Under the pieces are notes generated by a model that saw nothing but the letters and a program-made list of their open reading frames with translations, was not told the DNA's origin and did not search any database. 64,000 nt of DNA from Rozella allomycis CSF55 (Eukaryota > Rozellomycota). Shown here in pieces: positions 722-63,465 of the stretch. The translations under genes were made by a program, and so were the position numbers. Location of the stretch: the NCBI GenBank assembly GCA_000442015.1, contig KE561047.1, forward strand, positions 79,341 to 143,340. Direction: 5' to 3'. Numbering within the stretch: position 1 is the first letter of the stretch; every line of letters starts with the position of its first letter.

Positions 722-1137
722 ATGTCCAAAGAATTGAAAAGCAAGATAAAAGAGCGTTTGAAAGAAATAAGAGAAGAAATTCCAATTGAAGATCGAGTTT
801 TCGTAACTAGATGGTTAAACAAAATCCGCAAACCAGAATTTGTTGAAGTCACAAAGGAAAACGTTCTCAGTGATCGTTTGAGGGCTGAATACGAACATGT
901 ACCTATCAATTAGTATATATTTTTTCTAGGCATACTCAATTTACCCAAGATGTTTCAAAACTTATCCACGCAGAGCTACTCTTAGTTTTGTTGGTGGTGC
1001 CTTGACGTTCTTGACCATCTTTGTATTCAATGTTAACTATAACATGATTAACGTAATAATAATATAATTTTCGTGATCAGGGAACCACTCATCAAGCTCT
1101 CTCAAGAAATACAAGAAAGATCAAAAAATTGGAATAA
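722..1137 (+). CDS. Small single-pass membrane protein, possibly NDUFB4-like
   Basis: Three exons (722-898, 930-1052, 1081-1137) joined across introns of 31 and 28 nt give a 118-residue protein; the exon sum divides by three. The first half is highly charged and helical (many K/E/R), followed by one strongly hydrophobic helix near residues 77-95 and a basic tail. The order LRxEY, a YP motif, then a single transmembrane helix recalls the B15/NDUFB4 accessory subunit of respiratory complex I, as does the length (about 130 residues in that family). The match is by pattern only. If the organism is Rozella-like, which is thought to lack complex I, this would be surprising. Alternative: an unrelated inner-membrane protein. 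Confidence 0.5.
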
Positions 1138-1174
1138 ATTTGTTCTTGAATATTATAAGTGTTCATTTATTTAG

Positions 1175-1793
1175 CTATATTAGCCAATCGGGTGTATAGC
1201 CTTCATGATATATCACTAAGTCTGTGTTAAATAATTCAATAAATTGCTGGTCCATGGCCCGTGCCTTGGGGTTTGAAAATCGCCTGTATTCATCAAATAT
1301 TGATGTGAAGGTCCATCCCTGAAGTCTTCTTAGACAGCCTACTAAGCATCCTGTTCTATGCTTTTCCAATATACACAATGGATTTACTTTTCCTTTATTA
1401 CAATGTATCAGTGTCGGTAAATTCCTAGAATCAACAAGTACTGTTAGCGCTTTTGCAATGATATTTTCTGGGATATCAACAAACGGTTCCTTTAATTGAT
1501 TGAAAACCGACTAACCTTATTTCCTGGAACTCCGAATTGATACAACTTTATATTATTCTCATTCAAGAATTGCAGATTTATTTCAGGATAATCTTCGAGG
1601 ATAAGAGTTCTTTTACTTACATCTTAAAATATTACACTATTGACTTCAATTTTAGTTTTTTTATGAATGGGAAATGTCTTTTCTTTGGGAATGAAGATCT
1701 ATATACTCCTGGGCAAACCAAAGAAAAATTTTCGGGTGGGTATAAATCTATCTGGAAAGAGGAGTCTTCTTCGGTGACTATAGTATTGTCCAT
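1175..1793 (-). CDS. Siw14/Oca-type atypical dual-specificity phosphatase
   Basis: Predicted 179-residue protein from four exons separated by introns of 26, 26 and 27 nt. The last intron interrupts the active-site loop: splicing creates HCNKGKHRTGC, the Cys-x5-Arg phosphatase signature typical of the plant/fungal PFA-DSP (Siw14) family. The downstream block with [20 protein letters not shown] is also diagnostic. In yeast these enzymes hydrolyse inositol pyrophosphates and affect stress and endocytosis; cytosolic. The start is the first ATG of the open exon. The family is usually 150-280 residues. Convergent with the 118-residue gene upstream. Family assignment is firm, substrate is inferred. 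Confidence 0.88.
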
Positions 1794-1878
1794 ATTTTCC
1801 TGAAAATTCCTGGCCTCAAAGATTCATTAGAAAACTACAAATACAAAAAAGGAAGAAAAGAGATTTATATGTTTATGT

Positions 1879-2717
1879 CTAATTTAATGAATTAACCGTG
1901 TCATGTATCCAGTCAAGGAAACTTGAAATTTTTGTGTAGACACCGGGATACCCAACTCGACCACATTCTATATTAAACATAAGAAAATAATACCATATCC
2001 CCAGGAGACGATACCGACTATAAATATTTTCCCAGAGCTGTCTGTGACGAAGAGGCCACCGCCCGAATCTCCTTGACAAGTGTCTTTGTTTGCAACGTCT
2101 CCGCCTACACAAAGTTGCTTTCCCATGAAGAAATACTTTTCGTATATCCTCTTACAGATTGAAGGATTAACGATTGGGAGATTAACGAATAATAATGTGG
2201 ACGACAATACAGGTACGCCAAACTTTTGATATCCCCAGCCCAATGCCATTGTCTTGGTACCTTCTCTAGATAGATCACCTTTATCTAGCATTGCGAATTT
2301 CAAAGGCTCGTCATATGAGACAATTTTACGAAGCTTCCATACAGAAATATCGTTTTCATAGTTAACACCATTGTACTTTGGATGTCTTGAAATTTGCACA
2401 ACTGTGAACACTGTAGAATTTTCTGCAGTAGGTGGTAAGTTTATGTTATGTCTATGGACAAATACTCGCAAAGATGATATCGGACATGATGAAATTACAC
2501 AATGACCAGCAGATATGAGAATAGTGTCAGATATTAATGCACCCCCGCAAAAATGGTAACCCGAACATTGAATTGAGGCGGCAAAAGGAAAAATAAACGG
2601 GATCACTGGCTCTCCTCCCACTATTCTTTCATCTATATTCTGAGATATTAAGAAATGACAGGACGAAGATCCAAGAAGGCAAAACAGTAGCCCAGATAAG
2701 ATTAGTTTCGCTTTCAT
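1879..2717 (-). CDS. Secreted trypsin-like serine protease (S1A)
   Basis: Predicted 270-residue preproenzyme in two exons; a 26-nt intron near 1960-1990 removes an in-frame stop and restores the family C-terminus (GYPGVYTK...WI). An N-terminal signal peptide (about residues 1-20) and short propeptide end at the activation site DER|IVGGE. The catalytic triad is visible: His72 in SAGHC, Asp123 in NDIS and Ser218 in GDSGG. Asp212, six residues before that serine, predicts trypsin-like cleavage after Lys/Arg. The usual Pro after GDSGG is Gly here. Probably secreted; could act in nutrition or host interaction, which the sequence cannot tell. Trypsins are patchily distributed in fungi. Confidence 0.92.
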
Positions 2718-2828
2718 GCAAATTATTGTAAAGCGAATGTATGTTATTGTTTGTTTTTTGTTATCTTTGTTATTGTTGAATAAAAGTCTAAATTTTTGTA
2801 TAAACGAGTAATTAATGAAGTTGATTTA

Positions 2829-61485: not shown

Positions 61486-62541
61486 ATGTTGACGTTTAAC
61501 TTTGTACCCTTTCATGTCGATGAAACTAGACTTACTTTTGTTCTAATTATGTCATTGATTAACTGGTACTCGTTCTTTCTTGCCTTATTCATGCTCTTTC
61601 TATCTGTTTACGATAGATCTATTATTCGTACCCCAAACACTCTTGCATTGATGCCATTTATATTCACAGAAAGCTTAAAGTCATTTGCGATTGCAAACCT
61701 TCAGCTTGTAATCTATATTGGTGGGGGCTTTTCAATATATGGTGACGCGGGTTGCGCAATCATAGGTTTTATTGCGTTATATGGCTATCCCCTTGAAATG
61801 ATATCATTAGCAACCATAACATATGAACGTTACGCAGTTATTGTGAATTCCAAACGCCAGAGTCCTGCATTTGCTGACACTGTAAAAAAGATCATCTGTG
61901 GTGCTCTCATTATGGCATGCATTTGTACAGTGCCATTATTTTTTGGTCTTGGATATAGGTCAGCTCCCAGTGATGTTTATTGTATCTTGATCTGGCATTC
62001 AAGAGAAATTCCTGACCTCATAGTTTCATTTACAGTACTAGCAATTCTTGGTTTAGGTGTTGTTGCCATTGTGTATATGCAGTTTAAGATATTTAAACTA
62101 TTTCAAAGATCTGCAAATTTGGTGCAGCAAAAAAGCGGGAAACAATCTTCATCAACTGAGGCAAAGAGTTTGAGTAAGGTAATCAGCGTATTTCAAAAAT
62201 CTGCTAATTCATTACAGCAAAAAAGCAGAAAAAGGATTTCATCAAGTGAGCCAAGGAGTTTGGACTCGAATTCACGAAGAAAGTCGACCTTGAATTTGGA
62301 TCAAGAGAAGAAAGTGTTTATACGTGCCATGACTTTTGCCGGTGTTGCTTTTCTTTGTTGGACTCCCTATGTGATTATGATTATCCACAACATGATTACC
62401 GGCACTTCGATTGCTGTCTTTGATATGGTTGGATGCTTTATGGCAAATTCGTTGGCACCTCTGAATTTGACTCTCATGATCTTAATTACTCCTAGATTTA
62501 GAGATGCCGCAAAATCGTTTCTCTTTAAAAGTAGAAATTGA
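61486..62541 (+). CDS. Class A (rhodopsin-like) GPCR
   Basis: Single exon, 351 residues, seven hydrophobic segments. TM3 ends TYERYAVIV (E/DRY motif), TM6 has FLCWTPYV (CWxP), TM7 NSLAPLNLTLMIL in place of NPxxY, and a Cys in ECL2 region (YCILIWH) can pair with the one before TM3 (AGCAII). The third cytoplasmic loop contains two copies of a ~30-residue unit (FQRSANLVQQKS and FQKSANSLQQKS) rich in Ser/Lys. Fungi usually lack class A receptors. Ligand unknown; cytoplasmic loop likely phosphorylated. Confidence 0.85.
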   Translation: MLTFNFVPFHVDETRLTFVLIMSLINWYSFFLALFMLFLSVYDRSIIRTPNTLALMPFIFTESLKSFAIANLQLVIYIGGGFSIYGDAGCAIIGFIALYGYPLEMISLATITYERYAVIVNSKRQSPAFADTVKKIICGALIMACICTVPLFFGLGYRSAPSDVYCILIWHSREIPDLIVSFTVLAILGLGVVAIVYMQFKIFKLFQRSANLVQQKSGKQSSSTEAKSLSKVISVFQKSANSLQQKSRKRISSSEPRSLDSNSRRKSTLNLDQEKKVFIRAMTFAGVAFLCWTPYVIMIIHNMITGTSIAVFDMVGCFMANSLAPLNLTLMILITPRFRDAAKSFLFKSRN

Positions 62542-62747
62542 AAATAAATGAAGTTCCAAAGTTCAAAACATTACTATCATTACTCAATGTATGCGATACT
62601 TGATTCTTAATGGGGAATATGAATTGGTTTTAAACTTCTATATTTCCTTGATTTTTGAACTTAGGCTTAAAAGTTAAAACAGAGATGGAAAAATAGAGGC
62701 CTTGCAATGTAGATTGTCAAATAAATTATGTTGCTCTCAGCCACTCA
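62542..62747. other. Intergenic, nothing recognised
   Basis: AT-rich 3' flank of the GPCR gene; no frame, repeat or RNA seen. Confidence 0.5.
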
Positions 62748-62797
62748 GACAGCGTGTCCGAGTGGTTAAGGAGCATGCCTAGAAAGCATGTGGGTTT
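62748..62797 (+). tRNA. Truncated tRNA-Ser (AGA)
   Basis: First 50 bases of tRNA-Ser, identical to the complete copy at 63784, cut by the N at 62798 before the variable and T arms. Probably a contig end. Confidence 0.8.
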
Positions 62798-62886
62798 NGT
62801 ATTTTCTAATTGGCTAATTCAAGAACTCCATGATAATTGACAATGATATGATATTATATATTTAATACTTTAGTTTTTATTAAATT

Positions 62887-63465
62887 TTAATCGGCCTCTG
62901 TCATGATTGATATGAACTCTTGTTCATTAACTATTCAAGAGCATTTAAAGTAATTACTTTCACCGTCATTATCCAAGTCAAATTCATCAATCATAGCTTG
63001 CAGTTCCTCATCATCGATATTTTCACCCAACTCCTTTGCAACTCTTCTAAGATTGCGCAAGCTAATTTTCCCTGTTCCATCATCATCAAACAACTGAAAT
63101 GCCTTTTTGATCTCCTCAATAGGATCTCTATCCAAAATTTTCTCAGTCACTATAACAATATGACCAACTTTTTACTGATTTTGTTGAAATCATCAAATTC
63201 CATTAAACCATTTCCACTCTTGTCATAATCCCTGAGTAGTTTCAAAACTTCTGGTTTCTTAATATCAAATCCAAGTGCTCTCATGGCTACCTGGATGAGG
63301 GAAGTTGTTTGTGTTTACCTTTAGTTCGTGATAGTCCAACGCACCGTCCTTGTCTGTGTCAAACAGTTCAAAGGCCTCCTTTATTTCTAATTTTTGTTCT
63401 TCGCTTAATTCTGGGCGGGGCTGGCGTTTCTTTTGCAGGCTTTTGGAGAATGCTAGGTTTGACAT
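62887..63465 (-). CDS. CDC31: Centrin (CDC31 type)
   Basis: Four exons (introns 28, 26 and 27 nt) give 165 residues. Basic N-terminus ([18 protein letters not shown]), then four EF-hands: [48 protein letters not shown]; the end FISIMTEAD fits centrin. Calcium-binding protein of basal bodies/spindle poles and of nuclear export complex TREX-2. Start is the Met of MSNLAFSKS. Flagellated fungi keep centrins. Confidence 0.96.

What the first reader, a model, noticed from the sequence alone, without database searches (positions are those of the whole stretch)
722..63465. Very short, very uniform introns in nearly every gene
About 80 introns inferred from reading-frame and motif continuity fall almost all at 26-33 nt, with GT(A)...AG ends. 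In CTP synthase, NIP7, SDH1, GSIII, HMCES, centrin and others the coding sum after removal divides exactly by three and conserved motifs (for example the Siw14 active-site Cys-x5-Arg) are created only by splicing. Introns this short exist in few lineages (some ciliates, nucleomorphs, microsporidia). The narrow range suggests an intron-definition mechanism with a fixed size. Two host spliceosome-linked genes (CWC27) and two mobile elements share it.
Basis: partly seen in the sequence, partly recalled or inferred. Interest (0 to 1): 0.75.

Follow-up and report, generated by a model that had tools for sequence, protein, structure and literature searches.

The report
Ruler-length mini-introns, stacked end to end
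Nearly every intron in this stretch of the fungal relative Rozella allomycis is only 26-30 letters long with its branch point a fixed distance from its start, and in some genes of the same genome such introns are repeated head to tail with nothing between them, which gives a new way to study how the splicing machine measures introns and how introns multiply.

Summary
The window is Rozella allomycis CSF55 (spliced SDH1 is 100% identical to the deposited protein). A finder with a flat length prior that requires only GT..AG gives 30 introns of 26-29 nt, against 1-5 for 12 control dinucleotide pairs. Trained, it finds 290 introns in 264 kb (84 in the window); 266 are 26-33 nt, with a floor at 26. 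Alignment to homologues without splice signals recovers 15 of 21 introns at exact length. Two things go beyond the finding. (1) Whatever the length, an adenine sits at nucleotide 23 from the 5' splice site, and the 3' site is nearly always the first AG from position 25 on: a 5'SS-branch distance about half the human minimum. U1, U2, U6, SF1, a U2AF65-like protein and U2AF35 are present. (2) Whole introns lie end to end (AG|GT, zero-length exon): one pair in the window, a triple in PDH E1-beta, arrays of 3-6 in four selected loci, neighbours often copies of each other. At least one 79-nt intron exists (RPL27A). No RNA data were available; unit-by-unit splicing of arrays is inferred.

The parts
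1361..1387 (-).
   Evidence: only spliced HCx5R[ST]G hit in the window
2829..4663 (-). CTP synthase gene, introns 4419-4446 (28), 4168-4194 (27), 3937-3966 (30, stopless 3n), 3447-3475 (29), 3263-3288 (26), 3098-3124 (27)
   Evidence: deposited Rozella protein P0241 agrees with all six removals
3937..3966 (-). 30-nt stopless 3n intron missed by ORF-based finding; A at nt 23
   Evidence: homology-only spliced alignment and deposited protein
14156..15535 (+). CWC27-like cyclophilin, predicted introns 14995-15022 (28), 15186-15214 (29)
   Evidence: PF00160 148.8 bits, which does not reach the introns
18511..19100 (+). RPL27A (L28) gene: 79-nt intron after ATG 18514-18592, then 18657-18685 (29) and 18910-18938 (29)
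   Evidence: read by hand; Pfam Ribosomal_L27A 56.4 bits on residues 73-147 of the spliced protein; the N-terminal match [14 protein letters not shown] is recalled
18514..18592 (+). 79-nt intron, the exception to the short class; not divisible at AG|GT
   Evidence: in-frame stop directly upstream of the exon; splicing gives [14 protein letters not shown] (read)
20091..22455 (-). type III glutamine synthetase, introns 22048-22074 (27), 21874-21899 (26), 21582-21609 (28), 21374-21401 (28)
   Evidence: PF12437, 234.9 bits
22871..24808 (+). SDH1, introns 22941-22967 (27), 23159-23185 (27), 23463-23489 (27), 23733-23760 (28), 23977-24005 (29)
   Evidence: 100% to deposited Rozella protein; 5/5 exact by homology alone
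32240..34297 (+). DENND6-like gene with ten predicted introns of 26-28 nt (32453-32479 ... 34140-34165)
   Evidence: 5 of 10 exact by homology alone, the other 5 gaps at or beside the same sites with other lengths
48111..48138 (+). first unit (28 nt) of a stacked intron pair in a Yak1/DYRK kinase
48139..48165 (+). second unit (27 nt) of the stacked pair; AG|GT junction, no exon between
   Evidence: kinase aligns across the junction, with a 4-residue gap a few residues upstream
48320..49074 (+). further Yak1/DYRK introns 48320-48350 (31), 48611-48638 (28), 48759-48785 (27), 48909-48935 (27), 49048-49074 (27)
51169..54313 (+). chitin-synthase-like gene (recalled name), introns 51400-51426 (27), 53367-53395 (29), 53444-53470 (27), 53539-53564 (26)
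54335..54969 (-). HMCES/SRAP gene (5' end not complete), intron 54846-54871 (26)
   Evidence: PF02586, 113.6 bits
58881..60653 (-). TBC-domain-like gene (name by eye) with nine introns of 26-34 nt
62887..63465 (-). centrin, introns 63291-63318 (28), 63150-63175 (26), 62931-62957 (27)
   Evidence: EF-hand families

Best explanation
These are ordinary U2-type (major spliceosome) GT-AG introns of Rozella allomycis that have shrunk to the lower limit its spliceosome accepts. Shown by sequence: a 26-nt floor, 5' site GTAA, a UUURAY-like branch motif whose A is at nucleotide 23 (or 24) from the 5' splice site whatever the total length, no room for a polypyrimidine tract, and a 3' site that is nearly always the first AG starting at position 25 or later. 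Inferred: U1 and U2 bind as one intron-spanning unit that works as a ruler (intron definition), and the 3' AG is then found by a very short downstream scan. Because each intron is a self-contained 26-31-nt cassette, a duplicated copy placed end to end (AG|GT) can be removed without changing the mRNA. I think arrays of 2-6 units are removed unit by unit (recursive splicing with zero-length exons) and grow partly by unit duplication.
For: Length peak with controls (a modest raw excess). Homology-only splicing exact in 15 of 21 introns; deposited Rozella SDH1 and CTP synthase use the same introns. A at position 23 when only the donor (-3 to +6) and NAG are scored and the length prior is flat: 18/19 (26 nt), 16/22 (27), 25/35 (28-30; background 0.33, P=2.9e-6), 8/9 (31-36); with a length prior 57/65, 48/74, 78/104 (P=8.9e-17) and 7/10. 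A motif model anchored at the 5' end beats one anchored at the 3' end (log-likelihood gain 112.1 vs 79.3 for 252 introns; 54.0 vs 44.7 for the 81 of the flat run); only 2 of 113 introns of 28 nt or more skip an AG starting at position 25 or later. U2 with GTAGTA, U6 with ACAGAGA, U1 with ACTTACCT (U1 scored 69.0, cut-off 69.5); SF1, U2AF65-like (126.7 bits in one stretch, below the full-length cut-off), U2AF35, an SMU1-type LisH domain. Stacked units: internal exons of 0 nt at 5 junctions, of 1-27 nt at none, of 219; flanks align without a gap at the junction in PDH E1-beta, CCT3 and a dynein. TRF, which knows no splice sites, finds 23 arrays of period 25-33 in four selected loci, 21 with 2-5 in-register AG|GT junctions, against 0 of 10 in a 200-kb control. 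44% of 61 neighbouring units are at least 75% identical, against 7.6% between arrays.
Against: No RNA evidence: deposited models may themselves be predictions. A real 79-nt intron (RPL27A) shows that longer introns are not excluded. In the independent GTAAGT..TAG sample A23 is only 52% of 46 (background included). Genome-wide, the stacked-pair pattern has 224 matches against 194 for the reversed control pattern, so stacks are concentrated in a few loci rather than common. Those loci were chosen because they matched the pattern. Six of 21 homology-only introns had a different length from the finder's. Of the four stacked sites in C191 and the window, the 27+36 pair was not checked against homologues, and in the debranching-enzyme and Sec7 genes no alignment across an array was made. 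No RED match (inconclusive).
Confidence: 0.8

Rival explanations
1. The stacked arrays are single longer introns, spliced from first GT to last AG, that happen to contain a neutral minisatellite of a former short intron.
For: Both readings give the same mRNA; a 79-nt intron exists in RPL27A; neighbouring units are often copies.
Against: Neutral copies should lose internal signals, yet 21 of 23 TRF arrays keep in-register AG|GT junctions while the copies diverge, and A at nt 23 or 24 is in 91% of 75 units against 40% for nt 21 or 22. A random 53-66-nt GT..AG sequence splits into two proper units in 106 of 4000 trials.
Confidence: 0.25
2. No ruler: introns are short only because deletion bias shrank them to a steric floor, and the constant branch position follows from that floor alone.
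For: The length distribution has a hard floor at 26 nt and decays upwards. The mikrocytid paper discusses such a threshold (PMC10245619, passages read).
Against: Under a pure minimum, longer introns should carry the extra bases on either side of the branch point; in 28-36-nt introns the A stays at nt 23 and the extra bases lie downstream.
Confidence: 0.3
3. The short introns are chance GT..AG joins of open frames.
For: In AT-rich DNA such joins are easy to find; joins of 50 nt and more from the finder are no more frequent than in controls.
Against: Control dinucleotides show no 26-29-nt peak; homology without splice signals recovers the same gaps; the deposited proteins agree.
Confidence: 0.02

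Closest known systems
Paramecium introns (P. tetraurelia median 25 nt, P. bursaria median 24 nt; PMC12862383, passages read)
   Same: Intron-rich genome with uniform introns of about 25 nt, GT-AG, U2-type
   Different: Rozella has a sharp 26-nt floor and a fixed 5'SS-branch distance; the passages I saw do not state a fixed 5'SS-branch distance or end-to-end introns for Paramecium
Stentor coeruleus 15-16-nt introns (PMC9505925, passages read)
   Same: Tiny uniform introns, weak branch consensus, branch A in a preferred position
   Different: In Stentor the branch A moves from position 10 to 11 with length 15 to 16, i.e. it keeps its distance to the 3' end; in Rozella it keeps its distance to the 5' end
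Mikrocytid introns of 16-17 nt (PMC10245619, passages read)
   Same: Intracellular parasite, narrow length class
   Different: There 224 introns and a reduced spliceosome; Rozella has about 2 introns per kb of coding DNA here, and SF1, U2AF35 and a U2AF65-like protein were found
Microsporidian (E. cuniculi) introns (PMC2483917, passages read)
   Same: Sister lineage of Rozella (PMC8476143, passages)
   Different: 13 introns with a strong CTAAY branch motif; Rozella is intron-rich with a degenerate motif
Recursive splicing at zero-length exons, and stwintrons (PMC7138796, PMC8469720, passages read)
   Same: One interval removed by consecutive splicing reactions
   Different: Stwintrons are nested; here complete units stand end to end, up to six, and are often copies of their neighbours

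Membership tests
U2-type spliceosomal introns | GT..AG ends | tested here: met
   control dinucleotides give no peak; SDH1 5/5, CTP synthase 5/6 and DENND6 5/10 homology-only introns have GT-AG by sliding
U2-type spliceosomal introns | branch motif and U1/U2/U6 snRNAs with intact recognition sequences | tested here: met
   motif TTTRAW; U1 half a bit under the Rfam cut-off
U2-type spliceosomal introns | removal from mRNA | not testable with these tools
   no RNA reads; only deposited proteins agree
Genomes with ultra-short uniform introns | most introns under about 35 nt in a narrow range | tested here: met
   266 of 290 are 26-33 nt in the window plus 200 kb of C191
Genomes with ultra-short uniform introns | branch point at a fixed distance from the 3' end (Stentor type) | tested here: not met
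   5'-anchored model 112.1 vs 3'-anchored 79.3
Microsporidian-type introns | few introns, strong branch consensus | tested here: not met
   203 introns in 100.2 kb coding DNA; degenerate motif
Recursive splicing with zero-length exons | AG|GT junction between complete introns, flanks continuous in protein | tested here: met
   (four genes)
Recursive splicing with zero-length exons | splicing intermediates or single-unit lariats | not testable with these tools
   needs nascent RNA
Introner-like dispersed introns | near-identical copies spread over many genes | tested here: not met
   units of different arrays 75% or more identical in 7.6% of pairs, single introns 4.1%; only four loci plus C191 and the window compared

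The most novel reading that the evidence does not exclude
Rozella introns are fixed-length cassettes set by a 23-nt 5'SS-branch ruler. They multiply in place by end-to-end duplication into arrays of up to six, and the spliceosome peels the units off one after another through zero-length exons, so that copy number can drift like a satellite without touching the protein.
Probability: 0.55. Interest if true: 0.9.

Novelty: new variant of a known kind. Interest (0 to 1): 0.75.

Why it matters
How a spliceosome can act on an intron whose 5' site and branch point are about 22 nt apart is unsolved: human spliceosomes need about 46-52 nt (PMC11291888, PMC6692369, passages). Rozella has several of the early human-type factors (SF1, U2AF35, a U2AF65-like protein, an SMU1-type domain), so it may be a cleaner case than ciliates. 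Arrays of whole introns in near-copy are a direct, datable record of intron duplication, a proposed but rarely seen source of new introns, and they make stepwise splicing testable by ordinary RNA sequencing.

Tried and rejected
The in-frame-stop test (90 of 94 3n introns carry a stop when read through, against 70% in the other frames) is biased, because a stopless 3n intron is read through by the finder (CTP synthase 3937-3966); I draw no conclusion from it. Joins of 50 nt and more from the first finder run are as frequent with control dinucleotides and were treated as gene joins. My idea that stacked introns are confined to flagellar genes was dropped: a glycogen debranching enzyme and a Sec7 gene carry them too. 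Open-start gene finding on L038-L041 failed for most of the length, so arrays were parsed directly. That parse takes at least two coding stretches as units (the first of six in one L040 chain; the last of seven in one L039 chain, whose translation reads as debranching enzyme), so I give the largest array as six; these units stayed in the counts. RED_N gave no hit, with no positive control. James et al. 2013 is not held, so I cannot say what the genome paper wrote on introns. In the listings of searches (30 of 47 shown), 23 and 104 I saw no paper on Rozella intron length and opened only PMC8476143 of them; in the listings of 59 (12 of 70) and 73 (10 of 207) I recognised none on a fixed 5'SS-branch distance; one search listed two papers, whose passages do not describe end-to-end intron arrays; one search listed none. 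My notebook says DENND6 6/10 exact; the correct count is 5/10.
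Full report
What the window is. The window is C132:79341-143340 of a 9.97-Mb genome in 213 contigs. The SDH1 protein obtained by removing the short introns is 100% identical over 599/599 residues to 'succinate dehydrogenase [Rozella allomycis CSF55]'. CTP synthase is identical to the deposited Rozella protein except for a 10-residue stretch that the deposit removes as a further intron. So the source is Rozella allomycis, and the deposited annotation already uses introns of this size, at least in these two genes.

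Noticed in passing
window 18511-19100: RPL27A has a 79-nt intron directly after the start codon, as ribosomal protein genes of yeasts and microsporidia often do (recalled); a separate class of long introns in ribosomal protein genes may exist.
   Followed up: partly
window 6618-11481: Ty3/gypsy-like gag-pol ORFs (974 and 508 codons in the finder's output), without predicted introns.
   Followed up: no
window 42875-44900: MULE transposase gene (PF10551, 34.3 bits) with possible short introns, unverified.
   Followed up: partly
window 1-480: Repeated blocks around 'gaccttactacaggtgtcccccc' that look like repeated sequence; not analysed.
   Followed up: no
L039 541-1462 and 4431-4658: 462-bp and 113-bp direct duplications inside the debranching-enzyme gene near N stretches; may be assembly artefacts.
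   Followed up: no
window 32240-34297: The deposited DENND6 model (P0121, 421 aa) is truncated at its N-terminus compared with the 595-aa spliced model; missed mini-introns may have damaged public gene models.
   Followed up: partly
window 60904-60976: A tRNA found by Rfam (46.3 bits) but not by ARAGORN.
   Followed up: no
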